A stretch of DNA of 51,647 nt from Hoeflea sp. Lineage in GTDB: Bacteria; Pseudomonadota; Alphaproteobacteria; Rhizobiales; Rhizobiaceae. The DNA is taken from assembly GCA_019084245.1 (NCBI GenBank), contig JAHRFE010000016.1, positions 1 to 51,647 of the forward strand, in the 5' to 3' direction. How positions within the stretch are numbered: position 1 is the stretch's first letter; each line of letters starts with the position of its first letter. The position numbers and the translations under genes are program-made. Shown in pieces: positions 11,135 to 49,688 of the stretch. Below the pieces are notes generated by a model. It was not told where the DNA came from, did not search any database, and worked only from the letters and a program-made list of their open reading frames with translations.

Positions 11135-11530
11135 ATGTCGCAGGCGAGTACATGGCAGCGCAGAAAGGGTCCGCGTCTTTCGACGTGGAGCTTGAGGCGC
11201 TGGCTGGTCCTGCTGCTTGTATTGGCCTTTTCCGCATCAGGTCTCGTTCATATTCCGATGGGTGACCATTCCGCATCGGCAGCATCGCTTGCGCATGAGA
11301 TTGCGTCTGCGGGCGAGGACGTGACTGCGGAGCCGAATTGTGCCGGCGATGCCGATGACGCAACATGTTGTATCGCCAGCGTCTGTTCTTTCTGCGTCCC
11401 TATGACCGCATCGGCGACGATTGCTAGAGCGATGGTCGCCGGGATTGTCGCAGCGCTACCCGACGAGGTTCTCTTCGGCCGCGCGCCGTCACCTCGTTTC
11501 CGTCCCCCGAGTCTCTCCGCGAACGCCTGA
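11135..11530 (+). CDS. Small exported Cys-rich leader protein (DUF2946/CruR-like), leader 1
   Basis: 131 residues: a basic N-terminus, a hydrophobic export segment (RRWLVLLLVLAFSASGLV, about 21-38), a short His/Asp stretch and the cysteine cluster CCIASVCSFC. It ends in RFRPPSLSANA. A CXXC motif after a signal sequence plus a proline pair near the C-terminus is the layout of DUF2946-type leaders such as CruR. First gene of the cluster leading to DUF2933, methyltransferase and CopB genes. ATG 11135 is chosen because it directly precedes the basic export signal; upstream in-frame starts would add about 39 unlikely residues. Family assignment is by architecture only. Confidence 0.6.
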   Translation: MSQASTWQRRKGPRLSTWSLRRWLVLLLVLAFSASGLVHIPMGDHSASAASLAHEIASAGEDVTAEPNCAGDADDATCCIASVCSFCVPMTASATIARAMVAGIVAALPDEVLFGRAPSPRFRPPSLSANA

Positions 11531-11615
11531 GCCCGCGCAGCTCTCCCGGTGCGGCGGGCCGATCTGATCGGCTCTGGTCGATCCGAACCTGTGACGTTCC
11601 CGAGAGAGTTTCATC

Positions 11616-11732
11616 ATGAACCATTTTTCGCTCTGCCAATTTCTGGCATCCACAGCCGGTGCAGGCATGCCCGGCGCGGTTCTTTCGGCGCCGTTTTCAA
11701 AGTTCCTCCGTCAGGAGGCGCCGGCATCATGA
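11616..11732 (+). CDS. Possible 38-residue ORF
   Basis: MNHFSLCQFLASTAGAGMPG... ends by overlapping the next start codon in an ATGA. GAGAG lies a few bases upstream. It could be a translational leader for the DUF2933 gene, or only chance. No family recognised. Confidence 0.25.
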   Translation: MNHFSLCQFLASTAGAGMPGAVLSAPFSKFLRQEAPAS

Positions 11733-11986
11733 CTCATCATGATCATTCACCCGCTGAGCCAAAGGCAGACGAAAGCCGGCGGCCGCCGTTCCTGAGAACA
11801 CCATCGGGAGTGGCACTCTGCATATTTCTCGCCACTGCCGGCGCATTTCTGCTTTTCGAGCACAGGATTCATCTTCTGGGGGCATGGCCGCTCTTGTTCC
11901 TGCTGGTTTGCGGCGGCATGCACTTTTTCATGCATCGCGGTCACGGTGGACACGGCGGACACAAGGGTGGCAGAGATGAACGGTGA
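11729..11986 (+). CDS. DUF2933-type small membrane protein
   Basis: 85 residues: His-rich N-terminus (MTHHDHSPAEP), two short hydrophobic helices (about 27-45 and 48-66) and a His/Gly tail HRGHGGHGGHKGGRDER. This is the pattern of DUF2933 proteins commonly found beside copper P-type ATPases. Function unknown; metal contact by the His tails is plausible. AGGAGG lies ten bases before ATG 11729. Its last codons overlap the methyltransferase start. Confidence 0.7.
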   Translation: MTHHDHSPAEPKADESRRPPFLRTPSGVALCIFLATAGAFLLFEHRIHLLGAWPLLFLLVCGGMHFFMHRGHGGHGGHKGGRDER

Positions 11987-12632
11987 TGTTCCCGCCTACG
12001 GCCTGTGGTTTCTGGCCGCCTTGAACGCGGGCATCTTCATCCTGTTCGCATTCAGCTTCTTCAAGCCAACCACGGCGCGAGACTGGCGTTCGCTCGGGGC
12101 CTTCTCGGCCTTCATCGTTGCCTTGTTCGCAGAGATGTATGGCTTCCCGCTGACGCTCTATCTGCTGGCAGGCTGGGTTGGGAACAACTTCCCGGCTCTC
12201 GATCCACTCTCACACGATGCAGGCCACCTTTGGCCTGCCCTTTTCGGTTGGTCCGTGAATCCTCACTGGTCGCCTTTCCACCTGCTGAGCTTCGTCTTTA
12301 TCGGCGGTGGCTTCATGCTGATCGCCTCCGGCTGGCGAGTGCTGCACGATGCGCAAAACAGGGGCATTCTCGCAACGACCGGCCCATACGCACGCCTTCG
12401 GCATCCCCAGTATGCCGGCTTCGCACTGATCATGATCGGCTTCTTCCTGCAGTGGCCGACGCTGGTCACAGGCCTGATGCTGCCGGTGCTGCTCGTCATG
12501 TATTGGCGCCTCGCCAAACGGGAGGAGCGCGAGGTGGAGGCAGCATTTGGTGATCAATACCGCCGTTATGCCGGTTCAGTTCCGGCCTTCCTGCCGCGCC
12601 TCGCCTCTCTGCTCCGGTCGAGCAGGGGGTGA
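11976..12632 (+). CDS. ICMT/PEMT-like membrane methyltransferase, copy 1
   Basis: 218 residues with about five transmembrane helices. The C-terminal half has the isoprenylcysteine carboxyl methyltransferase/phospholipid methyltransferase signature: TTGPYARLRHPQYAGF, then LAKREEREVEAAFGDQYRRY. Such enzymes use SAM at the membrane, but the substrate of this bacterial subgroup is not known. A second, related copy lies at 15860; both share an AEMYGFPLT.YLL helix. ATG 11976 overlaps the DUF2933 end by 11 bases. Confidence 0.75.
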   Translation: MNGDVPAYGLWFLAALNAGIFILFAFSFFKPTTARDWRSLGAFSAFIVALFAEMYGFPLTLYLLAGWVGNNFPALDPLSHDAGHLWPALFGWSVNPHWSPFHLLSFVFIGGGFMLIASGWRVLHDAQNRGILATTGPYARLRHPQYAGFALIMIGFFLQWPTLVTGLMLPVLLVMYWRLAKREEREVEAAFGDQYRRYAGSVPAFLPRLASLLRSSRG

Positions 12633-12673
12633 TCGTGGCGTCCAATCTTCCCTATCAACCTGGAGTATAAAAA

Positions 12674-13330
12674 ATGAAAACGCGAAATATCCACACCGCC
12701 CTGTTTGCCGGTTTGCTTCTGCTTGGGACGGTGACCTCGGTCGCATCCCAAACCGCGGCGCCGGAGCAGGATCCTCACCACCCTGCGGAAACGCAGGCTG
12801 CATCGCCTTCGCCCGCAACGCCGGGTGACGCACCCGTCGCAACCGCGCCAACCGATGCCATGCCCGGTATGGGCATGATGACGCCGGAAATGATGCAGAT
12901 GATGCAACGCATGATGGGTCAGAGTGGAATGCCGGGAATGATGGGCCAGGGCGGAATGCCCGGCATGATGGAGGGCATGGCCGGAGGTGGCGCGGGGCCC
13001 GGCATGATGGGTCAGATGCCGATGGCCGGCATGATGATGTGCCCGATGATGGGCGGTCAGGCGGGGATGGGCATGCCCGGCATGATGGGTAGCCAAGGCA
13101 GCATGCTCGGAGCGCCGCTTGGCGCAGCGGAGGAGATGACCGAGGACCGCGTCCGCGCGCTATTGGAGCGGCAACTCGACACTCTTGGCAACCCGCGTCT
13201 CAAGCTCGGCGGGATCGGCACGGCGAGTGACGGAAGCATCACCGCGGAGATCGTCACCGTGGACGGCTCGCTGGTTCAGAGGCTCGGCTTCAACCGCTAT
13301 CCCGGTCTGGTCCGGCAGATAGTCGAATAA
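12674..13330 (+). CDS. Methionine-rich exported protein, likely periplasmic copper binder
   Basis: 218 residues: Sec signal peptide (cleavage likely after SVASQ, about 25-27), a Pro/Ala/His-rich linker, then a segment (about 63-145) dominated by MM, MPGMM and GM repeats with about 40 methionines and one cysteine (MMMCPMMGG). It ends in a folded-looking domain of about 70 residues (MTEDRVRALLERQL...RYPGLVRQIVE). Met clusters bind Cu+ in the periplasm in other systems; the role here is inferred. Located between a membrane methyltransferase and CopB. Confidence 0.7.
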   Translation: MKTRNIHTALFAGLLLLGTVTSVASQTAAPEQDPHHPAETQAASPSPATPGDAPVATAPTDAMPGMGMMTPEMMQMMQRMMGQSGMPGMMGQGGMPGMMEGMAGGGAGPGMMGQMPMAGMMMCPMMGGQAGMGMPGMMGSQGSMLGAPLGAAEEMTEDRVRALLERQLDTLGNPRLKLGGIGTASDGSITAEIVTVDGSLVQRLGFNRYPGLVRQIVE

Positions 13331-13380
13331 ACCGGTCGGAGACCTAGCGCCGTTGTTGGCGCCCACGCAAGGAGAGCACG

Positions 13381-15693
13381 ATGAAAACGGATGTACTAGA
13401 GGTAGGCGCCTTGCTGACGGCGTGGAGCCCGGACGAAGTGGCAAGGCGCATCGGCGAAGCGCCGGGCGTCGAAAGCGTCTCAGTGGATCACGCTGCGAAA
13501 AGCGCCACGGTCGTCTACGACGAAACCCGCATCGAGATTGCCGATATCAAATCCCTGGTGCAGCGGCTCGGGCGGGACACCGCCCCGCCCGCCGCATCGA
13601 CCGGAAAGGACCACAAAGGTCACAAGGGTCACACAGCTGCGCAAGCGTCGTCAGACAAGGCGGGGCCGGCGTCCGGCCATTCGGGCCATTCGGGCCATTC
13701 GGGTCATTCGGGTCATGGGAACCATGACAAGCACGAGGGCCATTCCCCCGCAATGTTCCGGGACCGTTTCTGGCTCTCGCTTGCTCTCACCGTGCCGGTA
13801 GTCATCTGGTCGGCCCACATTCAGGAGCTTCTCGGCTACCAGGCCCCGGCGTTTCCCGGATCGGACTGGATCGGCCCGGTGCTGTCGACGGTGGTGTTCT
13901 TCTACGGCGGTCTGGTCTTCCTGCAGGGAGCGTGGCGCGAGTTGCGATCCCGGCTGCCCGGCATGATGACGCTGATCTCTCTCGCTATCACGGTCGCCTT
14001 CCTGTTCTCCTGGGTGGTTCACCTCGGCCTGATCGAGGCGGACGCGCTGTGGTGGGAACTGGCCACCCTTGTGACGATCATGCTGCTTGGGCACTGGATC
14101 GAGATGCGGTCCATCAATCAGGCCGAGGGGGCGCTGAAGGAATTGGCGAAGCTGCTTCCGGACACCGCGACGCGGATCACCGACGGGGGCGAGGAGAAGG
14201 TCGCCGTAAGCGCCTTGCGGAACGGAGACCTCGTGCTGGTTCGCCCGGGTGAAAGCATCCCTGCGGACGGTCTGGTGCAAAAGGGCGAGAGCGACGTCAA
14301 CGAGGCGATGATCACCGGGGAGTCGAGGCCGGCGAAAAAGAGGGAAGGCGACGAGGTGATCGCCGCCACGATCAACGGAGAGGGATCGTTGCGCGTCGAG
14401 GTCACCGGGACAGGCGACAAGACCAAGCTGTCCGGCATCATGCGGCTCGTGGCCGACGCGCAGAAATCCAAATCCCGGGCACAGCACCTTGCCGATCGCG
14501 CCGCCCGGCTTCTGACCGTCGTGGCTATTGTCGCAGCGGTCATCACCATCGTGGTGTGGCAGTCCCTGGGGGCCGAGATCGACTACTCTGTCGTGCGGAT
14601 GGTGACGGTGCTGGTAATCGCCTGCCCGCACGCGCTGGGTCTGGCGGTGCCGCTTGTGGTGGCGAATTCCACGACGATGGGTGCCCGCAACGGGCTTCTG
14701 GTGCGCGATCGCCGCGGGCTGGAGGAGGCCCGCAACCTCGACACAGTGATCTTTGACAAGACCGGCACGCTGACGCTGGGCGAATTCCGGGTGGTGGCCA
14801 TGTCCGTTGCGGAGGATTTGTCGGAAGATGAAGCGCTTCGGATCGCGTCCGGCATCGAAGCGGAGTCCCAGCATCCGATCGCCCGGGGGATCGTAAAGAC
14901 GGCGGAGGACAAGGGCATCGACATTCCATCAGCCGATGGCTTTCGCGCGATCACCGGCAAGGGTGTGGCGGCCACCATCGAGGGCAGCGAATACCACATG
15001 GGTGGCCCGGCGCTTCTCAAGGCCGAGAATGTCGGGGTGCCGGCAGCGCTCCTGGAGGCGGCCGGGGCGGCGGCCGACCGCGGCCAGGCCGCGATCTATC
15101 TGGTTCGCGACGGCAAGGCCCTCGCCGTCTTCACCGTGGCGGATGCCATCCGCGAAGAGAGCCGCGAAGCCATCGCAGCGCTGCACCAACGGGGGATCCA
15201 GGTCGCCATGCTAACCGGCGACGCACAGGCCGTGGCCGATGCCGTCGCGAAGGAACTCGGCATTGACACCGTGTTCGCGGAAGTGCTGCCCGAGGACAAG
15301 GCTTCCAAGGTCCGCGAGCTTCAGGCCCAAGGCAAGAAGGTCGCCATGATCGGTGACGGCGTGAACGACGCGCCGGCCCTGGCCACCGCCGACATCGGGA
15401 TTGCGATCGGCGCGGGCGCCGACGTCGCCGTCGAGGCCGGGCATATCGTGCTGGTGCGATCCGATCCGCGTGATATCCCCCGGATCATTACGCTGAGCCG
15501 GGCCACGTACCGCAAGATGATGCAAAATCTGTGGTGGGCGGCGGGCTACAATATCTTCGCGATACCGCTTGCCGCCGGCGCGCTTGTGCCTTGGGGCATC
15601 CTGCTGACACCAGCCGTAGGCGCGGTGCTGATGTCGGTGAGCACGATCGTGGTGGCGATCAACGCGCAACTGTTGAAGCGGGTCAAACTATGA
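13381..15693 (+). CDS. copB: Copper-exporting P1B-type ATPase, CPH (CopB) class
   Basis: 770-residue P-type ATPase. Residues 1-64 form an HMA-like fold that lacks the CXXC pair. Residues 76-121 are His-rich with an SGH repeat. The TM6 metal motif is CPH (415-417), the phosphorylated aspartate is D459 in DKTGTLT, the HP motif is in ESQHPIARG, the hinge is in GDGVNDAPA, and TM7-8 carry YNIFAIPLAAG and MSVSTIVVAIN. CPH plus a His-rich N-terminus is the CopB/P1B-3 class, linked to Cu+ or Cu2+ (or Ag+) export across the inner membrane. GGAGA precedes the ATG. With copA deleted at 35.6 kb, this is the only complete copper ATPase in the window. Confidence 0.93.
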   Translation: MKTDVLEVGALLTAWSPDEVARRIGEAPGVESVSVDHAAKSATVVYDETRIEIADIKSLVQRLGRDTAPPAASTGKDHKGHKGHTAAQASSDKAGPASGHSGHSGHSGHSGHGNHDKHEGHSPAMFRDRFWLSLALTVPVVIWSAHIQELLGYQAPAFPGSDWIGPVLSTVVFFYGGLVFLQGAWRELRSRLPGMMTLISLAITVAFLFSWVVHLGLIEADALWWELATLVTIMLLGHWIEMRSINQAEGALKELAKLLPDTATRITDGGEEKVAVSALRNGDLVLVRPGESIPADGLVQKGESDVNEAMITGESRPAKKREGDEVIAATINGEGSLRVEVTGTGDKTKLSGIMRLVADAQKSKSRAQHLADRAARLLTVVAIVAAVITIVVWQSLGAEIDYSVVRMVTVLVIACPHALGLAVPLVVANSTTMGARNGLLVRDRRGLEEARNLDTVIFDKTGTLTLGEFRVVAMSVAEDLSEDEALRIASGIEAESQHPIARGIVKTAEDKGIDIPSADGFRAITGKGVAATIEGSEYHMGGPALLKAENVGVPAALLEAAGAAADRGQAAIYLVRDGKALAVFTVADAIREESREAIAALHQRGIQVAMLTGDAQAVADAVAKELGIDTVFAEVLPEDKASKVRELQAQGKKVAMIGDGVNDAPALATADIGIAIGAGADVAVEAGHIVLVRSDPRDIPRIITLSRATYRKMMQNLWWAAGYNIFAIPLAAGALVPWGILLTPAVGAVLMSVSTIVVAINAQLLKRVKL
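13672..13716 (+). repeat. Five tandem 9-bp units coding Ser-Gly-His
   Basis: Five near-identical nine-base units (tccggccat, tcgggccat twice, tcgggtcat twice) encode SGH x5 at residues 98-112 of CopB, followed by a divergent GNH. In-frame slippage could change the number of histidines in the metal-binding tail. Confidence 0.85.
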
Positions 15694-29693: not shown

Positions 29694-29732
29694 GGTTTTT
29701 CCTTTGGGTGTTGCATTGGATCGAGTTGATGA

Positions 29733-31091: not shown

Positions 31092-31112
31092 GGTCTTTTC
31101 CTTTCAGGAAGG

Positions 31113-32797: not shown

Positions 32798-32886
32798 GGT
32801 ATGATCCGAGTAGGAGATATCAGCGACGCAGTGAGCAAACCATGCTCAAATGCGCACGATCAAACCCGCAGAACGGGCATTCCTAC

Positions 32887-35050: not shown

Positions 35051-35056
35051 ATTGGT

Positions 35057-36718: not shown

Positions 36719-36867
36719 TTTATATTCCCTGATTCATAGGACGACGCCTCGGTCTGAGGTTTCGAACATGGTGTCTGGTTTCCGGTTGCCTGGCTCACTG
36801 CAAGATTGGGCTACCATGCGGTCGCGAATACGCCCTTAACCATCTCGCCAAGGGTGAGTATGCGAAA

Positions 36868-37929: not shown

Positions 37930-37957
37930 GGTTGAGTTCCTTTTGTTGTGCAAAGCA

Positions 37958-38615: not shown

Positions 38616-38862
38616 TGCATGCTCCGCGCGCAAATTGAATTACGCATCCGCCGTTTCGGCTATGTCCGAACCGGGCCTGAGCCAACGAAGGTGACTGGAA
38701 GATGGTGGAGATGTGTTGGCGGGCGGTTCAACTCAACCCCCAACATCAAACACCGTTCCGATCGCCGCCATGCCCGCGTGGAAAAGTTGAACCGCCAATA
38801 GCAGCGGACAGCTCTCTTCCCATCGCTGGAACAAGCTCAGCCGGAAGAACGATTCCGTCGCA

Positions 38863-39225
38863 TCAGGAAAATTTGGGAGGGGGAGCTGGAAACGGGGAAA
38901 ACTGTTGCCTTACGAAGGCCTGGGTCGAGGAAATCGCGCCGGCCGCATCGGCTGCACGGCTCGGTGCCTCGCCCGGCAAAATCGCCGCGGAATTGCAATG
39001 TACTTGATCGGCGCATTGCGGTGAGTACGGCGACATATCTCGTTCGGAGTTTCCAGGATCAAGCGAATGTACGGAAATCGCAACCGTCTGCATGTCGGAG
39101 AATTCGCTGGCATGCGTTTGTTGCAGGGAAATGGCGGAGAAATACAGAGCGATGATAACCACAAGCGTCAAGGTCTGCCAGCTAAGCCGACCTCCTTGCA
39201 AACTGCGATTTCGACGTGTTGGCAC
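38863..39225 (-). CDS. Small exported leader-type protein, leader 3
   Basis: About 120 residues (GTG start uncertain): export helix (LTLVVIIALYFSAISLQ), then a low-complexity body with one cysteine pair (QCADQVHC), ending SPFPAPPPKFS. Followed after 247 bases by the YHS-DUF5676-propeller-cytochrome genes. The Pro-rich end and position are as in the other leaders, but the cysteine spacing is C-x5-C and no Shine-Dalgarno sequence suits the GTG, so this is the weakest of the six. Confidence 0.45.
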   Translation of the reverse strand: MPTRRNRSLQGGRLSWQTLTLVVIIALYFSAISLQQTHASEFSDMQTVAISVHSLDPGNSERDMSPYSPQCADQVHCNSAAILPGEAPSRAADAAGAISSTQAFVRQQFSPFPAPPPKFS

Positions 39226-40087: not shown

Positions 40088-40119
40088 GGTTCCAGGCGGG
40101 TGTCTATTCGCCTGGAACC
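40088..40119. terminator. 11-bp perfect hairpin straddling the cusA stop codon
   Basis: GGTTCCAGGCG (40088-40098) pairs with CGCCTGGAACC (40109-40119) around a ten-base loop that contains the cusA stop codon. It lies between convergent genes (39427+ and cusA-). No U-run on either side. Confidence 0.5.
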
Positions 40120-43100
40120 AATTCTGATGGGACTGCGTGGGCTCCAGCCAGTTCACGGTTGATCCGTTTCAGGCCCAGCCGCTTCCAGATGACAAAGAGT
40201 GCCGGGATAACCAGAAGCGTCAGCAGCGTGGCGGTTGCCATGCCCCCGATCATCGGTGCCGCAATCCGTTGCATGATCTCCGATCCGGTCCCTATGCCGT
40301 ACATGATCGGAATCAGGCCGGCGAAAATGGTGGCGACCGTCATGATCTTGGGCCGAACGCGAAGCAATGCACCTTCAAAGACCGCCTCCTCGATATCGTC
40401 GCTGGTGACCATGCGCTGTTCAGCCGCGGCCGATTTCTTGCGCTTCTCCCAGGCCAGATTGAGATAGAGCAGCATGATAATCGCCGTCTCGACTGCGACC
40501 CCGGCAAGCGCGATGAAGCCCACGAGAACAGCAACCGAGATGTCGAAACTCAAATACCAGATCAGCCACATTCCACCTGACAAGGCCACTGGCAGTGATG
40601 CCAGAATGATGGCGACCTCCGTCACCCGATTAAAGGCCAGAAAGAGCATCAGAGTGATGATCAGGAGTGTGGCAGGAGCAACCAGTGTCAGTCGCTCCTG
40701 CATGCGTTCGATATATTCGTACTGGCCCGACCATGTGATCGAATACCCCGTCGGCAGGGACACCTGATCGGCAACAATCCGGCGGGCCTCCTGAACATAA
40801 CCGCCGAGATCCCGACCAGCGATATCTATGAACACAAAGCCGGTTCGCCGCGCATTTTCCGAGCGGATCATGGCAGGTCCGTCAACCACCTTGACCTCCG
40901 CAATTGCTCCCAGTGGAATATGCGCGCCAGAGGGTGTGACCACCGGAAGTTCGCGCAATCGTTCGGGGCTGTTGCGCCAGTCCTGGGGGTAACGAAGATT
41001 GATCGGAAAGCGCTCAAGCCCTTCCACACTTTCAGAAACCTGCATCCCACCGATGGCGGTTTGCACCAGGTCCTGGATTTCGCGCACGCTCATCATGTAG
41101 CGCGCCGCCTGGTCACGATCGACGTCGATTTCAATGAACCGGCCACCCACGGGGCGTTCCGCATAAGCAGAGGCCGTTCCGGAGATCCCCGCAACAACAC
41201 GCTCGATCTCAATCCCGATCCGCTCAATGACTTTCAGATCAACGCCAGAGATTTTCACGCCAACCGGTGTCTTGATACCGGTTGCCAGCATGTCGATCCT
41301 GTTCTTGATCGGCTGTATCCAGACATTGGTGACACCCGGCATTTGCACGGCCCTGTCGAGTTCATCACGGATTTTCTCCATGGTCATTCCTGGCCGCCAT
41401 TCGGCTTCCGGCTTGAGCTGGATTGTCGTCTCGATCATCGTCAGGGGCGCTGGGTCGGTGGCGGTGTCTGCGCGTCCGAGCTTGCCGTGAACGGTCTTTA
41501 CCTCCGGCACTGTCGCAATCAGCCGGTCAGTTTGCTGCAGCACTTCCCGTGCCTTGCCGATCGAAACGCCGGGATAGAGGGACGGCATGTAGAGAAAGTC
41601 GCCTTCATTCAGCGCAGGCATGAACTCCGTGCCGACACGCTGCAATGGCCAGGCGATCGATGCAACCACGACGACCGCCAGAAGGCTTGTTCCCCAAGGC
41701 CAAGCGACGGCCGCGTCAAGAAATGGCCTGTAGAGCCAGATGCAAAGTCGATTGAGCGGGTTCTTTCTCTCCGCGATGATGCGCCCGCGCACGAAATAGC
41801 CCATAAGAACCGGAACCAGCGTGATCGACAGAATGGCCGCCGCCCCCATGGCATAGGTCTTGGTAAAGGCCAGCGGTTTGAACAGCCTGCCTTCCTGACT
41901 TTCGAGCACGAACACCGGAAGGAAACTGACGGTGATGATGGCGAGAGAGTAGAAAAGCGCTGGGCCAACCTCGGAAGCGCACTCGGCGACCAGACGCCAG
42001 CGGTTCTGGGGCGTCAACGGCTCCTTCTCGATCCGTCGATGCATGGCCTCGATCATGACAATCGCAGCGTCGACCATCGCGCCAATGGCAATGGCAATGC
42101 CGCCAAGCGACATGATGTTGGCGTTCACGCCCTGGAGTTTCATGATGATGAACGCGGCCATTATGCCCAGAGGCAGGGAAACCACGATCACCAGGGACGA
42201 GCGGACATGCAGCAGAAACGCGCCGCAGACCAGGACCACCACAATGAACTCTTCAGTCAGCTTGTCCTGGAGATTCTCGATCGCCCTTTCGATCACGCCT
42301 GCGCGGTCATAGGTGGTGACGATCTCCACACCTTCAGGCAGACCTTTCTTGACCTCTTCGAGCTTGGTTTCCACGGCCTTGATGGTGGCAAGCGCATTTC
42401 CTCCCCACCGCATGATGATGACACCGCCCACGGCGTCGCCCTCGCCACCGAATTCACCGACGCCCCGCCGCATTTCCGGCCCGAGCCGTATATCCGCTAC
42501 ATCACCCAGGGTGACCGCCGCGCCGCGTGAATTGACCATCAAGGGCGCGCTGGCCAGGTCCGCAATCTCGTCGATATACCCGGTCGAGCGGACCATGAAT
42601 TCAGCCTCGCCCATTTCCACGACGCTGCCGCCGGTTTCGCGATTGGCGTCCTGAATAGCGCTACGGATTCTGGACAGGGTAATGTCGTAAGCCCTGAGCT
42701 TGTTGGGGTCGACCACGACTTGATATTGTTTGACCATACCTCCGATGGTGGCCACCTCGGAGACGCCATCGACGGTTTGCAGCTCATATTTCAGGAACCA
42801 GTCCTGCAAGGTCCGCAGCTGCGCCAGATCATGGCCACCGGTTCTGTCAATAAGCGCATATTGGTATATCCAACCTACTCCTGTGGCATCAGGCCCCAAT
42901 TGCGGAGATGCCCCAGCGGGCAGGCTGTTGGTGATTTGTGCCAGATATTCGAGCACGCGGGTACGCGCCCAGTAAAGGTCAGTACCGTCTTCAAAGACGA
43001 TGTAGACGTAACTGTCACCAAAAAACGAAAAACCGCGAACATCGGTGGCTCCGGGAACGGCCAGCATCGCCGTTGCAATCGGATAGGTGACTTGATCTTC

Positions 43101-43283
43101 AACCACTTGCGGGGCCTGCCCGGGATAGCTGGTCTTGATGATGACTTGCACATCGGACAGGTCAGGGATTGCATCCACGGGCGTGTTTCGAATTGCCCAG
43201 ATACCTGCCAATGCCATCATGATCGCCAGGGCAATGATGATGAGCCGGTTTTGAATTGAGCCTCGAATGACTGCGGGGATCAT
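40104..43283 (-). CDS. cusA: Heavy-metal RND efflux pump CusA
   Basis: 1059-residue RND transporter of the HME subfamily with twelve helices. Methionines equivalent to the E. coli CusA copper relay are visible: GTEFMPALNEGDFLYMP, APLTMIETTIQLKP, and IQPIKNRIDMLATGIK. The charged TM4 segment IAIGAMVDAAIVMIEAMHRR is the proton-relay region. Exports Cu+/Ag+ from periplasm (and cytoplasm) through CusB and an outer-membrane channel. ATG overlaps the cusB stop by four bases. Confidence 0.95.
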   Translation of the reverse strand: MIPAVIRGSIQNRLIIIALAIMMALAGIWAIRNTPVDAIPDLSDVQVIIKTSYPGQAPQVVEDQVTYPIATAMLAVPGATDVRGFSFFGDSYVYIVFEDGTDLYWARTRVLEYLAQITNSLPAGASPQLGPDATGVGWIYQYALIDRTGGHDLAQLRTLQDWFLKYELQTVDGVSEVATIGGMVKQYQVVVDPNKLRAYDITLSRIRSAIQDANRETGGSVVEMGEAEFMVRSTGYIDEIADLASAPLMVNSRGAAVTLGDVADIRLGPEMRRGVGEFGGEGDAVGGVIIMRWGGNALATIKAVETKLEEVKKGLPEGVEIVTTYDRAGVIERAIENLQDKLTEEFIVVVLVCGAFLLHVRSSLVIVVSLPLGIMAAFIIMKLQGVNANIMSLGGIAIAIGAMVDAAIVMIEAMHRRIEKEPLTPQNRWRLVAECASEVGPALFYSLAIITVSFLPVFVLESQEGRLFKPLAFTKTYAMGAAAILSITLVPVLMGYFVRGRIIAERKNPLNRLCIWLYRPFLDAAVAWPWGTSLLAVVVVASIAWPLQRVGTEFMPALNEGDFLYMPSLYPGVSIGKAREVLQQTDRLIATVPEVKTVHGKLGRADTATDPAPLTMIETTIQLKPEAEWRPGMTMEKIRDELDRAVQMPGVTNVWIQPIKNRIDMLATGIKTPVGVKISGVDLKVIERIGIEIERVVAGISGTASAYAERPVGGRFIEIDVDRDQAARYMMSVREIQDLVQTAIGGMQVSESVEGLERFPINLRYPQDWRNSPERLRELPVVTPSGAHIPLGAIAEVKVVDGPAMIRSENARRTGFVFIDIAGRDLGGYVQEARRIVADQVSLPTGYSITWSGQYEYIERMQERLTLVAPATLLIITLMLFLAFNRVTEVAIILASLPVALSGGMWLIWYLSFDISVAVLVGFIALAGVAVETAIIMLLYLNLAWEKRKKSAAAEQRMVTSDDIEEAVFEGALLRVRPKIMTVATIFAGLIPIMYGIGTGSEIMQRIAAPMIGGMATATLLTLLVIPALFVIWKRLGLKRINRELAGAHAVPSELVPGE

Positions 43284-45505
43284 CGGCCCGGCTCCGTGAC
43301 AGCTTCAACGCCAAGCAGTGTGAGGCTGAAGTCCGGGTTCTTGCGCATCAACAGCTGCAGCTCGCGGCCTTTTGGCAACTCCTCGAGCATGACCGTATCC
43401 GCAGCGAGGAAATCCATCACCATGCCTGGCATGCCGATCTCGACCATTGGACCATGACTGATATTGACCATACGGGTATCGGGGTCGACGGAATTGATGA
43501 TCCCTGAAACCCGCATCGGCGGCGCATCGAGAGCAACCGAAGCCAACACCATGGTCATGCCGTCAGGTCGCTCAAAAGTCAGCATGGCTTCGGATTTGAG
43601 CGGAAGTGATGCGGGATCAAGCGCATCCGAGATGGCAAAATCCATCGTCATGCCCGGCATGCCGATTTCCTTGATCGGCCCATGCTTTATGGTTGCCATT
43701 CCCGTGTTCGGGTCGATCTTTTCGATCTGACCGGAGACCATGATTGGTGCGGCCAAGGCAGCATCCACTTTGGGTTCTGCCATCGGCTCTGGGGCTTTCG
43801 CAATGCCATTCGGTTTTGGTGCACCTTCCTGGCCAATCGCGCGCACGGCAACAATCGAGACCATGCCGCTATCGTCCTTGGATAGATCGAACTCGACTTC
43901 TGCGTTGAGCGGAACGGCTGCAATGTCCACTCCGGCAACATCCATATCCATTCTCATGGCAGGCCAGCCCAGTTCCGGAATTGGTTTGTGATCAACGGTC
44001 AGTTTGCCATCTGCGGTCACCGCCTGCACCATCCCGGTTCCTGTTGCAGCGATACCGTTGTCCAGACCGAGTTCCGTGAGCGCCAAAACGCCGTCTGCAT
44101 CCCGTACGGCAGCAAATGCCACTTCTTCGCCCGGATTCAGGTGCGACTGAGAGATACCGGCACGGAGCGGAAATTGCGTCTCCATGGCAGGCCAGCCGAG
44201 CATTTCGAGTTGATCATGCCTTATCGTCGCTGTGCGGGCCTCGGCATCAAGGGCAACCAGTACTCCCTTGCCACGGGCCGGCTCCTGATCGGTCGGGGCC
44301 ATGCGCATTAGGCCCGCACTCAGCGAACTTTCACTGTCGATCAGGAATTGCGCAGAGGCGACAACCACTTCGCCAGCGGCAAGACCTTGAATGATTTCGG
44401 TTCTGGCACCTTCCCCGAAACTGTCATTAAGCCCTGTGGTCACCAGCCGTGGAATGAACGTTCCGTCAGCTGTCCTGAGAATGACCCGCTCAGCCGTTCC
44501 CGTACGGATGACGGCTTCAGTTGGAACCGTGACCGAGCGCTTCGTTGCATTGGGCACCAGTGCGACCTCACCGAACATGTTGGGGCGCAGCAGACCATCC
44601 TTGTTGTCAAATCGGAGCCGGACAGGAAGCGTTCGGGTGGTGGCATCCAGTTCCGGGTAGATGTAATCAATCGTCCCATTCAGCTCGATGCCTGGCAGGT
44701 GCTCGAACTTTGCAGAGGCCTTCATGTCTTCGTTAAGCCGTGCAATGTCACGCTCGAACACGTCAACAACGACCCAGATCGAGGACAGATCGCTCAATGA
44801 AACGGCTAGCGTATTGGGCTGGAGATACATGCCGTCGGCGGCAGTCAGACCAATCACAACTCCGTCTCTGGGTGCATAGACTTCAATCCTGTCGGTATTC
44901 TTGCCTTCGTTCAGGATCGCATCGATCTGTTGCTCGGACGCACCATGGCTGCGAAGCTTGTTCCGGGCGTTTCTTTGCAAGCTTGGATCATCGTTCTTGT
45001 AGTACAACGCGATATCTGCCACCGCGACGGCAAACTCGGGCGCAAACATTTCAAAAAGCAGATCACCTTCTGCAACCCGGTCACCGACTGCGCGGACATT
45101 GAGCTTTTCAATCCAGCCGTTCACACGGGTGTGCACATGGCTTGTGTTGTGCTCATTGTAGCGCACAAAACCGACCGTCTCGATCCGCTGCGAGATTTCG
45201 TCGATCTGGGCAGTCGCTGTCCTGACGCCGATTGAATTGATTTCGACAGCAGAGAGCTTGACCTCGGAGGGGTCGCCCGATTTCTCTTCACCCGCATAAA
45301 CCGGGATAAGGTCCATCCCCATGGGCGACTTCCCGGGTCCAGGCCGGCGAAAATTCGCATCCATCGGCGCGACCCAGTAGAGAATCTCCGGGCCGGCATC
45401 TTCCGAATTAATTGTCGAGGCAGAGTGAAAACGCTCCCCGAACACACCTCCGGCAACACCGGCACCAAAAGCAAGGATAGAAAGCGCAACATAGCGTCCA
45501 CGCAT
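43280..45505 (-). CDS. cusB: CusB adaptor with four C-terminal CusF-like domains
   Basis: 741 residues. An N-terminal anchor/signal is followed by a heavy-metal-binding domain (ILYWVAPMDANFRRPGPGKS, PMGMDLIP), then the membrane-fusion core (barrel, lipoyl and beta-barrel domains, about 80-400), then four consecutive CusF-like domains (about 412-736). Usual CusB proteins are about 400-500 residues, with at most one CusF fusion known to me. GAAGGAG precedes ATG 45505; an upstream start at 45541 lacks support. Delivers periplasmic Cu+ to CusA. Confidence 0.93.
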   Translation of the reverse strand: MRGRYVALSILAFGAGVAGGVFGERFHSASTINSEDAGPEILYWVAPMDANFRRPGPGKSPMGMDLIPVYAGEEKSGDPSEVKLSAVEINSIGVRTATAQIDEISQRIETVGFVRYNEHNTSHVHTRVNGWIEKLNVRAVGDRVAEGDLLFEMFAPEFAVAVADIALYYKNDDPSLQRNARNKLRSHGASEQQIDAILNEGKNTDRIEVYAPRDGVVIGLTAADGMYLQPNTLAVSLSDLSSIWVVVDVFERDIARLNEDMKASAKFEHLPGIELNGTIDYIYPELDATTRTLPVRLRFDNKDGLLRPNMFGEVALVPNATKRSVTVPTEAVIRTGTAERVILRTADGTFIPRLVTTGLNDSFGEGARTEIIQGLAAGEVVVASAQFLIDSESSLSAGLMRMAPTDQEPARGKGVLVALDAEARTATIRHDQLEMLGWPAMETQFPLRAGISQSHLNPGEEVAFAAVRDADGVLALTELGLDNGIAATGTGMVQAVTADGKLTVDHKPIPELGWPAMRMDMDVAGVDIAAVPLNAEVEFDLSKDDSGMVSIVAVRAIGQEGAPKPNGIAKAPEPMAEPKVDAALAAPIMVSGQIEKIDPNTGMATIKHGPIKEIGMPGMTMDFAISDALDPASLPLKSEAMLTFERPDGMTMVLASVALDAPPMRVSGIINSVDPDTRMVNISHGPMVEIGMPGMVMDFLAADTVMLEELPKGRELQLLMRKNPDFSLTLLGVEAVTEPGR
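43298..44272 (-). repeat. Four tandem CusF-like domain repeats in CusB
   Basis: Repeats at about 412-482, 489-558, 590-659 and 666-736 of CusB. Each has a beta-strand, D.....T..H motif, then LGWPAMET, LGWPAMRM, IGMPGMTM and IGMPGMVM. Repeats 1-2 keep the CusF tryptophan; 3-4 replace it with Met. Repeat 2 has H506, W514, M517 and M519, matching the full E. coli CusF site; repeat 1 lacks the second Met. A Pro/Ala linker separates pairs 1-2 and 3-4. Confidence 0.85.
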
Positions 45506-45591: not shown

Positions 45592-45999
45592 TCAGATTGT
45601 GCGAGGAGGACGCTCATGAACCATCACAGCATTGGTTTTGGATGGCAGCAAATTGAGGTTGAGGTAACTGCTGAGGCCAAATATGAAAAGCGGGGAGACT
45701 GAGCGCAGGCGATCTTCTACCACAAAATAGCATGACAACGTGATGCAATCGCCGACCATAGAACCCAACTGATCGCCCTGCTTTTCATCATCGATCTGCA
45801 TGTGCGCCCGCACATGCGTGATCTCGCTCTCGGCATTAGCGGGCTGTGCTACCACAATTGAAAATGCAGCGGTTTTGTCGGCCGCGCAAGTGGTTGCATT
45901 CGCGACAGGCGCTGACTGAACCATCAAAATCGCGACAATCATTGCGCTCGCCAAGATGCGAGCTGTTATGTTTGAAATGTTGCATATGATCAACGACAT
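45592..45999 (-). CDS. Small exported leader-type protein, leader 4
   Basis: 135 residues: export segment (ARILASAMIVAILMVQSAPVANA), body with C-x4-C (DCITLSC) and an earlier TCAAD, ending VMVHERPPRTI. CAGGAG precedes the ATG. Located 86 bases before cusB, so it heads the cusBA unit. The HERPPRTI end resembles HRPPRI of leader 2. Function inferred from architecture only. Confidence 0.55.
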   Translation of the reverse strand: MSLIICNISNITARILASAMIVAILMVQSAPVANATTCAADKTAAFSIVVAQPANAESEITHVRAHMQIDDEKQGDQLGSMVGDCITLSCYFVVEDRLRSVSPLFIFGLSSYLNLNLLPSKTNAVMVHERPPRTI

Positions 46000-46091: not shown

Positions 46092-46523
46092 TTAATCATC
46101 GGTCGTTTTCCTTGTCTGGCTGGTTTGGGATAGGGAATGCCGGGACGAAACCGCAATACTGACGGTTTGTGCGTCTCTGCCAGTTTCGTTCGGCAAAAAA
46201 TTATCTGGAGCACGGCCGGGTAACGAGGTTTGATCGCCTACGGCGGCGGTGTTTTCGGCCTGGCTTGACTTGCAGGAACCGCCGGTCACCTTGTTCATGC
46301 AGAGTCCGAGCGCGCACATGGCGGCGCATGGTAGCGCCGCAAGCAGCAGAGGGGCCGCCCCCACGGCGACGAGCCAGCTCCAATTGAAGACAAGGCCACC
46401 AAAGAGCGCAAGCGTGGCAAGTATGAGGAGACCCCTGCGCCCGCCGAGGTAGTAACGAAGCGCGTAGAGAACGCCGCGGCCAAGCGAACCGTCGTCTGAA
46501 TCGGGTTGTCGTATCGTGGCCAT
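46092..46523 (-). CDS. Small membrane protein with a Cys-rich segment
   Basis: 143 residues: one or two helices (LLILATLALFGGLVFNWSWL and LVAVGAAPLLLAALPCAAMC), then CALGLCMNKVTGGSC and a hydrophilic tail. The C-x4-C...C cluster at the membrane edge could bind metal. Last gene of the operon leader5-BNR-DUF411-small protein-cytochrome. AAAGGAAATC precedes ATG 46523. Family not recognised. Confidence 0.6.
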   Translation of the reverse strand: MATIRQPDSDDGSLGRGVLYALRYYLGGRRGLLILATLALFGGLVFNWSWLVAVGAAPLLLAALPCAAMCALGLCMNKVTGGSCKSSQAENTAAVGDQTSLPGRAPDNFLPNETGRDAQTVSIAVSSRHSLSQTSQTRKTTDD

Positions 46524-46579
46524 AATGATTTCCTTTTCAGTTCGCCGCGTTCCGGCCACCGGTTGCTCTCTGACCATGC

Positions 46580-47065
46580 TCATGACCCGTTCCCGTCTTT
46601 GGCAGTTACTCGAGCCTGTGATTCCCGTTGGCGCTCGGGCCAGGTACTCTTGATAAAAGCGAGCACGGCGGCGATGTCGGCGTCGCTCAGGATCTCGCCG
46701 AAGGCTGGCATGTCACTCTCATAGCCCGGGACGACGCCACTGACACCAAGCTTGGTGATGGTGAATAGGTCCTGGTCCGAGTGATGCCAAGTGTGGCCGT
46801 CCTCATCATGCGGCGGCGCGGGCATGCGGCCGTTCTCCAGCCTGCGCTTCCAGTCCGGCTGGCCCTCAAGGTTAGCGCCATGGCAGGAGGCGCAGTTTTG
46901 CGTATAGGCCTGCCTTCCGAGGGCGATCTGCTCGCTTGTTACTTGCTGGCCAAGGACGGTTAGGCTCTCCGCTCGCACATCGCCGCTCGGCAGTTGCGCA
47001 AGCCCAGCGATGGCAGCCAGAGCCGAAACGGCGATAGCGGAAAGGATGATCATGTATCGCATCAT
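46580..47065 (-). CDS. Class I c-type cytochrome
   Basis: About 161 residues: signal peptide (IILSAIAVSALAAIAGLAQL), haem motif CASCH (58-62) followed by GANLEGQPDWKRR, a His-rich loop DEDGHTWHHSDQD, and axial Met in ESDMPAFGEIL. Typical of small periplasmic cytochromes in copper/DUF411 clusters. ATG 47065 overlaps the stop of the preceding 47-residue gene (ATGA); MRY at 47062 is an equal alternative. Confidence 0.82.
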   Translation of the reverse strand: MMRYMIILSAIAVSALAAIAGLAQLPSGDVRAESLTVLGQQVTSEQIALGRQAYTQNCASCHGANLEGQPDWKRRLENGRMPAPPHDEDGHTWHHSDQDLFTITKLGVSGVVPGYESDMPAFGEILSDADIAAVLAFIKSTWPERQRESQARVTAKDGNGS

Positions 47066-47205
47066 CTCGGTCCCCACAGATATTTTACCAGCGCGAAGAG
47101 GCCGAGGACCAAGACAGCAAGGACCAGCAGCACGAAAAGACCACCTCCGGCCATCATCATTCCCATCATGGAGCCATCCATCATCCCGTTCATGCCATCA
47201 CTCAT
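47062..47205 (-). CDS. 47-residue Met-rich single-helix membrane protein
   Basis: MSDGMNGMMDGSMMGMMMAG then GGLFVLLVLAVLVLGLFAL and a short basic end. Ten of the first twenty residues are Met, followed by one transmembrane helix. Four-base overlap at each end (ATG inside the DUF411 end, stop overlapping the cytochrome ATG) argues that it is translated. Confidence 0.65.
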   Translation of the reverse strand: MSDGMNGMMDGSMMGMMMAGGGLFVLLVLAVLVLGLFALVKYLWGPR

Positions 47206-47677
47206 CGGAATAGACCGTGACGCCGTTCGTGCCGAACGCGTAAGTCTTAAGCGTGCCGGTTTTTACCGGCGCCATGCCGGGAGCATTCCCCGGCATCCCG
47301 GGCAATGTGATGCCGGTGACATCAGGACGATCGCTGACCAACCGCTCAATGATCTCGACAGGCACGAGCCCGCTCACGACATAGCCGTCGATCTCGGCCA
47401 GATGGCATCCGATTCCCTTCTCGGGAACGCCCATCTCAATCGAGCGCTTGTCGAAATCGCGATCATCGACGCGTGTCACGGTAAAGCCGTTGGCCTCCAT
47501 ATAGTCGGCATAGACGTCACAGCAGCCGCAACTCGGATCGAGCCAGATCGTGATCGCCTTTGCGTCAACTGCGGTGGCGCTTTCTTGCGCGGTCTGAGCC
47601 GCGGTCAACGTGATGAAGGCCGTACCACCTACTAGAGCTAGGGCGGCAACGGATGGGACAAAAGATATCTTTTTCAT
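47198..47677 (-). CDS. DUF411 metal-binding exported protein
   Basis: 159 residues: signal peptide (about 1-27), then the DUF411 domain with ITIWLDPSCGCCDVYADYM, an absolutely typical SCGCC motif, GIGCHLAEIDGYVVSGLVPV and a Met/Pro-rich LPGMPGNAPGM near the end. The family occurs in copper and silver clusters and is thought to bind metal via the cysteines. GAAGGAG precedes ATG 47677. Overlaps the 47-residue gene. Confidence 0.9.
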   Translation of the reverse strand: MKKISFVPSVAALALVGGTAFITLTAAQTAQESATAVDAKAITIWLDPSCGCCDVYADYMEANGFTVTRVDDRDFDKRSIEMGVPEKGIGCHLAEIDGYVVSGLVPVEIIERLVSDRPDVTGITLPGMPGNAPGMAPVKTGTLKTYAFGTNGVTVYSDE

Positions 47678-47688
47678 GATGTTCTCCT

Positions 47689-48627
47689 TCAAAGGTTTGC
47701 GAGCGCGGACCAGGACCTGCCGCCATCGCGAGTTTGTGTGAGGCCGTCCCGGGTCAGGGCGGCGACGTGATCGGCATTTTCTGGATGGACAGCGAGCGCT
47801 TGCGCGCGAGACGATGAGCGTTGCGCCCAGACAACTCCAGCGTCCTCGGACACCCAAATCCCCGAAGGCAGGGCCGCATAGAGCCTCATCGGAAGCGATG
47901 GCGCGCTGATCAGCGCGAGGATTGGCTCGCCTTTGGGCAATGGCACCTCGGGAACGGGTGCTCCTCCAGAAACCAATGCATCCATCGCATCGCCAGGCTG
48001 CACGTCTTGCCAGCGGCAGAAGCAGTCGGGCACGCGCGTCAGGCCCAGCTCAGTTCCGGCATAAATCCAGATACCGCCCATGCCTGTGGCCAGATCGACC
48101 GAAGTCAGGGCCATCGTGTCGCGCTCGGAGCCCTCCAACCATGGCCGGTCCATCGCGAAGGCCCAGGACCGGCCGGCATCATCGCTTTTCCACAGGCCGT
48201 CGCCACGAACGGCCGCGTACAAGGCATCGGGGCTCAAGGCCGCCACCGTGACGGCCGTCACCGGAGCATCGGGCAAGCCCTGATTTCTTGCCTCCCAGCT
48301 CCGCCCTCCGTCCACGGATAGGGCGACGCCCCCCTTTGCGAGCCCCGCCGCAATCCGGCCGGCACGGTCCTTGTGCGTCACAAGCGAGAGAACATTGCCG
48401 CCCGCAGGTCCGCGGAGCGGTGTCGATGCTTCGCCATCGTCGCGGCGCAACAACTGCTCACTCCCAACGATCAGCGCATCGCCATCGAAAGCAATCGCAA
48501 AACCAGTTGCGGCGGGCGTGGCGCCAACGGTCCGGATTCCTGAAGCCGAGGCCGCCGCACCGGCCCCGAAAGCCACAACGGATGTGAGAAAAGTTCGACG
48601 CGTTGGCGTCGGTAAAAGCAATGTCAT
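47689..48627 (-). CDS. Exported BNR/sialidase-like beta-propeller protein
   Basis: 312 residues: twin-arginine-like signal (TRRTFLTSVVAFGAGAAASAS), then repeats with SVDGGRSWEARNQGLPD, WKSDDAGRSWAF, WVSEDAGVVWAQR and RDGGRSWSALANL, the Asp-box (SxDxGxxW) motif of BNR propellers. No catalytic sialidase residues can be asserted; Asp-box propellers are also found in non-enzymatic photosystem and redox assembly factors. Eleven bases before DUF411, so co-transcribed. Confidence 0.8.
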   Translation of the reverse strand: MTLLLPTPTRRTFLTSVVAFGAGAAASASGIRTVGATPAATGFAIAFDGDALIVGSEQLLRRDDGEASTPLRGPAGGNVLSLVTHKDRAGRIAAGLAKGGVALSVDGGRSWEARNQGLPDAPVTAVTVAALSPDALYAAVRGDGLWKSDDAGRSWAFAMDRPWLEGSERDTMALTSVDLATGMGGIWIYAGTELGLTRVPDCFCRWQDVQPGDAMDALVSGGAPVPEVPLPKGEPILALISAPSLPMRLYAALPSGIWVSEDAGVVWAQRSSSRAQALAVHPENADHVAALTRDGLTQTRDGGRSWSALANL

Positions 48628-48756
48628 GATATTCCAACCATCCTGAGAGGTGCTCGAACTCGCAGTGCGCGACCTCGCGATGCGATGTAGGATCATGGGC
48701 GATCAGACAGACCGCGCATGATTTCAGCCGCTCGCCGGAACGGAGTCCGGGCGGCG

Positions 48757-49095
48757 TCAGCTCAGGGCAATGGATCGTGGAGGGTAAGGCTCCGGCAGTC
48801 CGGTGCGTCCGGACACGCTGTGAGAAACCAGGCTTTCGATGGTCGTCTCGACCTCAGGAAGGCCAGCTTGGTCGACTGGCACGACGGCCAATATGGGAAA
48901 TACGCAAACATTGCCGCATGGCTGCATGTCATCACCGCCGTCTGGACAATCCTGGCAGTCGCCCATGTCGCCGCTGCCGATAGCGGCAATCGTCATCTTC
49001 GCGTTCATGCTGGCGGCATTCGCAGCATGCAGAACCGATCCTGCCGAAAAAACGGCGAGTAACAGGATCAACAGAATGCGGACGCTCCTTACCAT
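48757..49095 (-). CDS. Small exported Cys-rich leader protein (DUF2946/CruR-like), leader 5
   Basis: 112 residues: export segment (RSVRILLILLLAVFSAGSVLHA), then DCQDC (CXXC), PDGGDDMQPC, GNVCVFP, and the end PEPYPPRSIALS. CXXC plus terminal PP is the CruR-like pattern. Heads the BNR-DUF411-small protein-cytochrome operon, 129 bases before its second gene. Divergent from leader 6; the 248 bases between (49096-49343) must hold both promoters, but I see no clear box. Start taken at ATG 49095 because it directly precedes the export segment. Confidence 0.58.
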   Translation of the reverse strand: MVRSVRILLILLLAVFSAGSVLHAANAASMNAKMTIAAIGSGDMGDCQDCPDGGDDMQPCGNVCVFPILAVVPVDQAGLPEVETTIESLVSHSVSGRTGLPEPYPPRSIALS

Positions 49096-49343
49096 ACCAC
49101 AGTGAATAGTCTGAAACCCCTGCCCTGTCGATATACGTTTTGTCGCATCACTCGTAAGGGGCCAAAAACCGATCGCCGCTCGAAAATCTAACCCAGACCT
49201 TGGTAGAGCCTGCAGCAGGAGCGCAGTGTTTCTGTTCTCGCTGGCAAATATGTCTCGGCTGAACGAAACGGGTGCGTTTTTCACACGAAAAGTTAACCAT
49301 GGATCATATAGAAAAAGGACGCCCTTGAAGCCAAAAGAGTGCC

Positions 49344-49688
49344 ATGATCCGCGTATTGACCTTCATTCTAGCCTTGCTGCTGGCGCTTCCGGCGCTCGCG
49401 CATTCCGTTGACTCGGTCAACATTCTCCCTGACTGCCAAAGCCGAACTGATGCGACCGAATGCATTTCAATCGCCGTTGGCAGTGCTCTTGGTTCCGACG
49501 CGATGCCGCTCGGCGAGGAAACCGGAAGCACATCATCCGCGCACTGTCAGATGCACTGTGCAATTTTTGCTGAGACGACTGTTCCAACTGTCGCGCCCGA
49601 CATAGAGGAGCATGACACCGAATTCACACCCGTGCTTCTTTTCAACGTCGGATATGTAGTCCCACGGCCGCCAGACGCTGACGCTTGA
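49344..49688 (+). CDS. Small exported leader protein, leader 6
   Basis: 114 residues: Sec signal peptide (MIRVLTFILALLLALPALAH), then PDCQSRTDATEC, SAHCQMHCAIF and the end YVVPRPPDADA. Cysteines are C-x3-C with interposed His/Met. Precedes the first L,D-transpeptidase gene by 57 bases. The PRPP end matches the proline-pair endings of the other leaders. This is the only one heading cell-wall genes. Confidence 0.58.
   Translation: MIRVLTFILALLLALPALAHSVDSVNILPDCQSRTDATECISIAVGSALGSDAMPLGEETGSTSSAHCQMHCAIFAETTVPTVAPDIEEHDTEFTPVLLFNVGYVVPRPPDADA

What the first reader, a model, noticed from the sequence alone, without database searches (positions are those of the whole stretch)
11135..49688. Six transcription units each begin with a small exported protein ending in a proline-pair motif
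Seen: ORFs at 11135 (+), 33282 (-), 39225 (-), 45999 (-), 49095 (-) and 49344 (+) are each about 110-135 residues, with an export segment, a cysteine cluster (CXXC in two, C-x3-5-C in the others) and ends RFRPP, HRPPRI, PAPPPK, HERPPR, PYPPR, PRPPD. Each is the first gene of a separate unit that follows 57 to 247 bases later. Known: CruR (DUF2946) of Bordetella and CutF of Rhodobacter are exported leaders whose nascent chain senses copper and arrests at a C-terminal proline motif. Inference: the window holds six paralogous copper-responsive translation leaders, possibly each tuned by cysteine spacing. I know of no such density.
Basis: partly seen in the sequence, partly recalled or inferred. 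Interest (0 to 1): 0.9.

Follow-up and report, generated by a model that had tools for sequence, protein, structure and literature searches.

The report
Six copper-sensing leader genes together
Six small exported proteins in one bacterial copper-handling region look like built-in copper sensors that switch on the genes behind them while they are still being made; this kind of switch is already known, but having six together, one in front of cell-wall enzymes, gives an unusually clean place to study it.

Summary
All six ORFs exist, and a mechanical rule (export segment, late proline pair, cysteine pair in register) finds just these six in the window and none in 320 kb of the same genome. Five of the six could be tested for selection, and all five are constrained. 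Five precede copper genes; leader 6 precedes L,D-transpeptidases.

Best reading: CutF-type translational leaders. In the leader-2 family the leader's stop codon pairs with the next gene's Shine-Dalgarno (SD) sequence, with covariation; a ribosome held at the proline pair would open it. This lock is well supported in family 2, supported in 5 and 6 (covariation only in 5), weak in 1 and 4, and not shown in 3 or in unit 5 as it stands here.

Pausing and copper response are inferred, not measured.

The parts
11135..11530 (+). Leader 1 (131 aa; CCxxxxCxxC; ...RFRPPSLSANA)
   Evidence: relative L015, 61% identical, before the same DUF2933 gene; weak relative L124; dN/dS 0.44
11616..11732 (+). 38-aa ORF with SD GAGAGAG, overlaps the DUF2933 start (ATGA); probable first regulated gene of unit 1
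   Evidence: by reading, L015 has an ATG behind the same SD at the same place
11729..15693 (+). Unit 1 cargo: DUF2933 protein, Met-rich protein without Pfam match, P-type ATPase with a heavy-metal domain
32887..33282 (-). Leader 2 (131 aa; CCSDVC; ...HRPPRI); CopL-like
32805..32891 (-). RNA lock of unit 2: UCUGAGUAG (leader end with its stop codon) pairs with CUACUCGGA carrying the SD of the next gene; CCCG..CGGG hairpin between
29214..32797 (-). Unit 2 cargo: 75-aa lipoprotein-like ORF, OEP/TolC, multicopper oxidase, plastocyanin-like protein
38863..39225 (-). Leader 3 (120 aa, GTG start; C-x5-C; ...PAPPPKFS)
   Evidence: dN/dS 0.24
36287..38633 (-). Unit 3 cargo: YHS-domain protein, DUF5676 membrane protein, YncE-like beta-propeller, cytochrome c
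45592..45999 (-). Leader 4 (135 aa; C-x4-C; ...HERPPRTI)
   Evidence: ERPPR end kept in two relatives of only 23-27% identity before the same kind of CusB; dN/dS not computed
40104..45505 (-). Unit 4 cargo: CusB with four CusF stretches, CusA-type RND pump
48757..49095 (-). Leader 5 (112 aa; CxxC...CxxxC; ...PYPPRSIALS); same family as leaders of Tat multicopper oxidases in relatives
46092..48696 (-). Unit 5 cargo: BNR/sortilin-like protein with a Tat-type signal (Pfam scores below the curated cut-offs), DUF411 (CopG/CutG-like) protein, cytochrome c, small membrane protein without Pfam match
49344..49688 (+). Leader 6 (114 aa; HCQMHC; ...PRPPDADA)
49746..51104 (+). Unit 6 cargo: two YkuD-type L,D-transpeptidase-domain proteins

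Best explanation
The six ORFs are CutF-type nascent-chain sensors. Each small protein starts to be exported while being translated. When the ribosome reaches the late proline pair, about 30 residues lie in the tunnel, so the Cys cluster 37-41 residues back has just emerged, at or in the export channel. Copper bound there holds the ribosome at the PP codons. The held ribosome covers the 3' end of the leader, which otherwise pairs with the Shine-Dalgarno region of the next gene; the lock opens and the copper (in unit 6, cell-wall) genes are translated. Shown here: conserved leaders, Cys-PP ruler, cargo, covarying stop-codon/SD helix in family 2, correlated arms in family 5. Inferred: the arrest, copper as ligand, the direction (copper turns on), and the lock in unit 3 and in unit 5 of this window.
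For: Leaders 1, 2, 3, 5 and 6: dN/dS 0.24-0.69 in 11 comparisons; last 15 residues more conserved than the rest in 10 of 11. Second Cys to PP 37-41 in all six, 39 in 14 of 14 leader-2 relatives counted, 41 in 19 of 25 leader-5 loci (window included); CutF C73 to P115 = 42, worked out from residue numbers in PMC8456105. Cargo. Family 2 (17 rows): RNAalifold alone pairs the leader stop with the SD; 92.8% of cells paired, 11 cells changed on both sides against 3.0 in shuffles, covariation score 0.266 against 0.132, both 0/500, and lower when slid. Own arms pair better than swapped ones in 11 of 11 (family 2, p = 0.0005) and 17 of 23 (family 5, p = 0.00015). Leader tail against SD region: mean z -1.94 in 54 relatives, 31 of 54 at p <= 0.05, against -0.21 and 8% in 37 control gene pairs. 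Covering the tail lowers the cost of opening the next start by 3.95 kcal/mol in 54 relatives (38 of 54 at 2 or more) against 0.81 in 37 controls (9 of 37), p = 2.6e-7; window units 4.6, 4.8, 1.5, 2.5, 0.1, 4.1 (p = 0.011 against 33 controls).
Against: No copper, pausing or expression data. In the window only units 2 and 6 have a significant duplex, units 3 and 5 hardly open, and mean SD accessibility does not rise (change 0.00, against +0.22 in 38 relatives and +0.04 in controls). Family 3 relatives: 1 of 4. Family 6: swapped arms do as well (own better in 2 of 4). In family 2 the number of pairs changed on both sides (3) is reached by 75/500 shuffles, and RNAalifold's covariation term is only -0.04. 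Of 10 other CutF-like leaders, 3 open by 2 kcal/mol or more. Relatives share ancestry, so p values are optimistic. Leader 6 relatives in Martelella and on contig C23 lack the second Cys. Isolated CutF tails did not arrest in a LepB fusion (PMC9973294, section read). Most DUF2933 and YHS homologues found lack such a leader.
Confidence: 0.72

Rival explanations
1. CruR-type control: without copper the ribosome stalls at the PP motif and blocks Rho; copper relieves the stall and Rho ends transcription between leader and cargo, so copper turns the cargo off.
For: Same protein plan. Unit 3 has a long gap (229-247 nt; CruR 162 nt, PMC9426467) and no supported SD lock. C-over-G stretches of 78 nt exist near the leader ends (no control was run).
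Against: No DUF2946 match in 6 of 6. Cargo is mostly detoxification, which should rise with copper. Families 2, 5 and 6 carry an SD lock that Rho control would not need.
Confidence: 0.12
2. The leaders are secreted copper-binding proteins or chaperones for the downstream proteins, and the PP end is a protein contact.
For: Export segments and Cys clusters; this was the first published idea for CutF (PMC8456105, passages).
Against: Conserved RNA pairing with the leader's stop region; steady Cys-PP distance; the published failure of cutF to act in trans (PMC9973294, section read).
Confidence: 0.08
3. The same leaders, but sensing another signal (another soft metal, or the redox state of the Cys pair) rather than copper itself.
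For: Cys pairs alone do not fix the ligand; leader 6 heads L,D-transpeptidases, and two of its relatives keep HCxMH rather than two Cys; arrest-type leaders before Dsb or thioredoxin genes are reported (PMC12992588, passages).
Against: Five of six cargos are copper or copper-associated genes.
Confidence: 0.15

Closest known systems
CutF of Rhodobacter capsulatus (cutFOG)
   Same: Small Sec-exported leader, C-x3-C, PP-R end, Cys-PP distance 42 against 37-41; SD-shielding stem-loop; cargo Tat multicopper oxidase plus CutG (CopG-like). In 16 of 24 other leader-5 loci the next gene is a Tat-type protein of over 440 aa; all 10 of these that were scanned are multicopper oxidases. Window unit 5 keeps a DUF411 protein.
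   Different: CutF itself was not compared by sequence here. In the window the oxidase place is held by a BNR/sortilin-like protein with the same kind of Tat signal. In family 2 the leader's own stop codon is part of the lock; whether that is so in CutF I could not check.
CruR (Bp2923, DUF2946) of Bordetella pertussis
   Same: Exported uORF with Cys motif and late proline motif before copper genes; arrest in vitro with the two Pro codons in the P and A sites is reported (PMC12992588, passages).
   Different: RAPP with CXXC and 45 intervening residues; copper turns the cargo off through Rho (PMC9426467, sections 9-11). None of the six leaders matches DUF2946.
CopL (NCBIfam NF033807)
   Same: Leader-2 family: 14 of 16 members match at E <= 1, best 2.2e-5; located before a multicopper oxidase operon.
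   Different: Window member 19.1 bits against a cut-off of 40; the other five leaders do not match.
CutF-like proteins, 29 similarity clusters (PMC9973294)
   Same: All six meet that paper's rule (<150 aa, signal peptide, PP in the last 15, same-strand gene within 1 kb).
   Different: Its main text has no occurrence of transpeptidase, YkuD, DUF411 or YHS; supplements not seen.

Membership tests
CutF-like leader (rule of PMC9973294) | <150 aa, N-terminal signal, PP within the last 15 residues, same-strand gene within 1 kb | tested here: met
   (signal judged by a hydrophobicity rule, not SignalP)
CutF-like leader (rule of PMC9973294) | Cys (or His) metal motif upstream of PP | tested here: met
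   second Cys of leader 6 not kept in Martelella and C23 relatives
CutF mechanism | Stem-loop shielding the SD of the next gene | tested here: inconclusive
   Relatives at p <= 0.05: family 2, 14 of 16; 5, 11 of 27; 6, 3 of 3; 1, 1 of 2; 4, 1 of 2; 3, 1 of 4. Window units: 2 and 6 only
CutF mechanism | Copper prolongs the pause and raises cargo translation | not testable with these tools
   Needs reporters or toeprints
DUF2946 / CruR (PF11162) | Match to the Pfam model | tested here: not met
   0 of 6 at E <= 10; own-genome search: two weak hits under the cut-off, on contigs C27 and C25, none in this contig; 5 of 16 leader-2 members weakly, best E 0.0012
DUF2946 / CruR (PF11162) | RAPP with CXXC at 45 intervening residues | tested here: not met
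   No RAPP in the six; second Cys to PP 37-41
CopL_fam NF033807 | Score above the curated cut-off | tested here: not met
   Leader 2 scores 19.1 against 40; 14 of 16 family members match at E <= 1

The most novel reading that the evidence does not exclude
One copper region runs a parallel set of copper-gated translation switches whose sensor proteins share no detectable sequence, only a ruler (Cys pair 37-41 residues before PP) and, in several, an RNA lock built from the leader's own end. Each switch is tuned separately, so oxidase, pump, ATPase and cell-wall cross-linking enzymes come on at different periplasmic copper levels; the L,D-transpeptidase switch would make up for copper-inhibited cross-linking.
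Probability: 0.27. Interest if true: 0.78.

Novelty: new member of a known kind. Interest (0 to 1): 0.56.

Why it matters
CutF and CruR are reported to answer copper in opposite directions, and how copper binding by the nascent chain reaches the ribosome is open. A region with six natural leaders that differ in sequence and Cys spacing but keep one ruler, with a covarying RNA lock in at least one family, allows side-by-side tests of tuning, polarity and ligand. L,D-transpeptidases are reported to be inhibited by copper (PMC11390936, passages), so a copper-gated leader before such enzymes would link copper stress to cell-wall repair. I saw no report of such a leader in the listings (only listed papers, not their texts) nor those words in the CutF paper's main text.

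Tried and rejected
Paralogy of the six: 6 of 15 profile pairs, 1-53%; not supported, though leader 2 against leader 1 aligns CC..C and RPP in register.

Leader 4 by its own sequence: besides the window, 3 weak partial hits in 199 genomes, all in long frames, two with stops, and no plasmid hit; the cargo-based search worked. Leader 1: no plasmid hit, one close (L015) and one weak relative (L124). Leader-like ORFs upstream of cargo homologues (rows read by eye): DUF2933, 2 of 29 loci (window, L015); YHS, 3 of 30 in register (window, L082, L090) plus L094 farther off, several of these loci being YHS domains inside ATPases or cut short; BNR-like, 6 of 8 within 1.3 kb (in L074 another gene lies between); CusB, window plus L044 and L045, and 15 of the other 27 farther upstream (one further row lacks Cys).

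The lock as a universal rule: 17 other leaders were taken, 10 could be given a next start by rule (7 dropped), 3 of 10 show it; rejected as universal. Rfam: no match at gathering score. Promoter scan: 6 found, 8.4 in shuffles; terminator-like sites: 28 found, 17.1 (sd 5.3) in shuffles, not followed up. A seventh candidate at 28373-28747 (+), ending CRPPMS, is not among the six that pass the rule, and I saw no same-strand cargo close behind it. No structure prediction was run.

Dropped rows: searches used 38 relatives; one search added 16 that I had left out (all four of family 3 among them). Still out: duplicates L127, L134, L143, L012, and L076, L155 whose next start was unclear. In one search one relative (L111) had a gap one base too long; corrected from then on.
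Full report
What is there. The window is the whole contig C12 of a 4.8 Mb genome in 46 contigs; the genome is placed in one genus with G046, which carries leader 3 at nearly the same coordinates as the Hoeflea sp. IMCC20628 plasmid, so it is probably a Hoeflea relative (inference). All six ORFs are present. Behind them: unit 1, a 38-aa ORF overlapping DUF2933, a Met-rich protein and a P-type ATPase with a heavy-metal domain; unit 2, a 75-aa lipoprotein-like ORF, an outer-membrane efflux protein, a multicopper oxidase and a plastocyanin-like protein; unit 3, YHS, DUF5676, a YncE-like propeller and cytochrome c; unit 4, CusB with four CusF stretches and CusA; unit 5, a BNR/sortilin-like protein (under Pfam's cut-offs), DUF411 and cytochrome c; unit 6, two YkuD proteins. 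Leader 4 is only 92 nt behind a same-strand gene and may be internal to the unit-5 transcript.

More than chance. The mechanical rule passes these six ORFs in the window and none in 320 kb from contigs C27 and C25 (p 1.1e-4; the Cys window was chosen after seeing the six; with PP alone p = 0.013). The genome has at least two more such leaders: a leader-5 copy at C45:39993-40331, followed by BNR-like, DUF411-type and cytochrome c genes, and a leader-6 copy at C23:2405-2749, followed by two YkuD genes; the rule missed both. Density is not unique: by the rule, five in 46 kb of the Hoeflea plasmid and three in 20 kb of an Allorhizobium plasmid.

Conserved as proteins. Leader 2: 121 plasmid records. 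Leader 3: Hoeflea, 73% identical, and three distant relatives (L082, L090; L131). Leader 5: 28 of 247 family genomes including this one and four plasmids. Leader 6: three plasmid records and two other family genomes. Leader 1: one close and one weak relative. Leader 4: two relatives at 23-27% identity that keep ERPPR. dN/dS is 0.24-0.69 in 11 comparisons covering five leaders (not leader 4); the last 15 residues are more conserved than the rest in 10 of 11. Each window leader has a Cys pair whose second Cys is 37-41 residues before the PP.

Leader 5 and cutFOG. In 16 of 24 other leader-5 loci the next gene is a Tat-type protein of over 440 aa; all 10 of these that I scanned are multicopper oxidases. 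In the window, on C45 and in Martelella it is instead a BNR-like protein with the same kind of Tat signal, followed by DUF411. R. capsulatus cutFOG has CutF, Tat CutO and CopG-like CutG (PMC8456105 passages, PMC9973294 sections), so unit 5 looks like a cutFOG operon with a different middle gene.

RNA lock. In the leader-2 family (17 sequences) the fold predicted without guidance pairs the last bases and stop of the leader with the downstream SD (its covariation term is only -0.04). 92.8% of cells pair; G-C to A-U and U-A to A-U exchanges occur; the covariation score is 0.266 against 0.132 in shuffles, 0/500, and falls when slid; the count of doubly changed pairs, 3, is not unusual (75/500). 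The tool warns that relatedness alone can beat such shuffles, so I also swapped partners: own arms pair better in 11 of 11 (family 2), 17 of 23 (family 5), 3 of 3 (family 4), but 2 of 4 (family 6) and 1 of 2 (family 1). Covering the tail as a ribosome at the PP codons would lowers the opening cost by 3.95 kcal/mol in 54 relatives (38 of 54 at 2 or more) against 0.81 in 37 ordinary gene pairs (9 of 37), and by 4.6, 4.8, 1.5, 2.5, 0.1 and 4.1 for units 1-6. By family, relatives with duplex p <= 0.05: 14 of 16, 11 of 27, 3 of 3, 1 of 2, 1 of 2, 1 of 4 for families 2, 5, 6, 1, 4, 3. Against: in the window only units 2 and 6 are significant, mean SD accessibility there does not rise, and other leaders gave 3 of 10. 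One of those three precedes a sigma factor in Hoeflea (z -4.3, 12.2 kcal/mol).

Membership. None of six matches DUF2946. Leader 2 lies near CopL. The six meet the published CutF-like rule. They are not shown to be paralogues.

Mechanism and novelty. I take them as CutF-type copper-responsive translational leaders, copper turning the cargo on. Arrest and copper response are inferred from CutF and from CruR, for which arrest at PP is reported in vitro (PMC12992588, passages). The kind is known; the number in one place, the L,D-transpeptidase cargo, the changed cutFOG middle gene and the covariation evidence for a stop-codon/SD lock are the additions. Papers: PMC9973294 (abstract, results parts 2-3, section 5, discussion part 1, a word search), PMC9426467 (abstract, sections 9-11), PMC8456105, PMC12992588 and PMC11390936 (passages only).

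Noticed in passing
window 43280-45505 (-): CusB adaptor with four CusF-type stretches in one 741-aa protein; besides this genome, 2 of the 249 genomes searched have a full-length relative (57% identity).
   Followed up: partly
window 47689-48627 (-): BNR/sortilin-like protein stands where many relatives of leader 5 have a Tat multicopper oxidase, and carries the same kind of Tat signal (LPTPTRRTFLTS).
   Followed up: partly
L009:9945-10361 (Hoeflea sp. IMCC20628 plasmid): A CutF-like ORF directly before an RNA polymerase sigma factor gene, with a strong predicted tail-SD pairing.
   Followed up: partly
L009:4603-5028: A second hypothetical-TolC-multicopper oxidase unit on the same plasmid is headed by a leader that looks unrelated in sequence, as if leaders are swapped while cargo stays; it shows no lock.
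   Followed up: partly
G000 contigs C45:39993-40331 and C23:2405-2749: Further copies of the leader-5 and leader-6 units in the same genome; the C23 leader lacks the second Cys.
   Followed up: partly
window 142-6811 (+): ATP-synthase-like operon (two alpha/beta-type subunits by Pfam; the rest read by eye), possibly an N-type ATPase, lies before the copper region.
   Followed up: partly
window 11616-11732 (+): 38-aa ORF between leader 1 and DUF2933 with its own SD and an ATGA overlap; in L015 an ATG with the same SD sits at the same place.
   Followed up: partly
window 32500-50500: Terminator-like hairpins are more frequent than in shuffles (28 against 17.1, sd 5.3).
   Followed up: no
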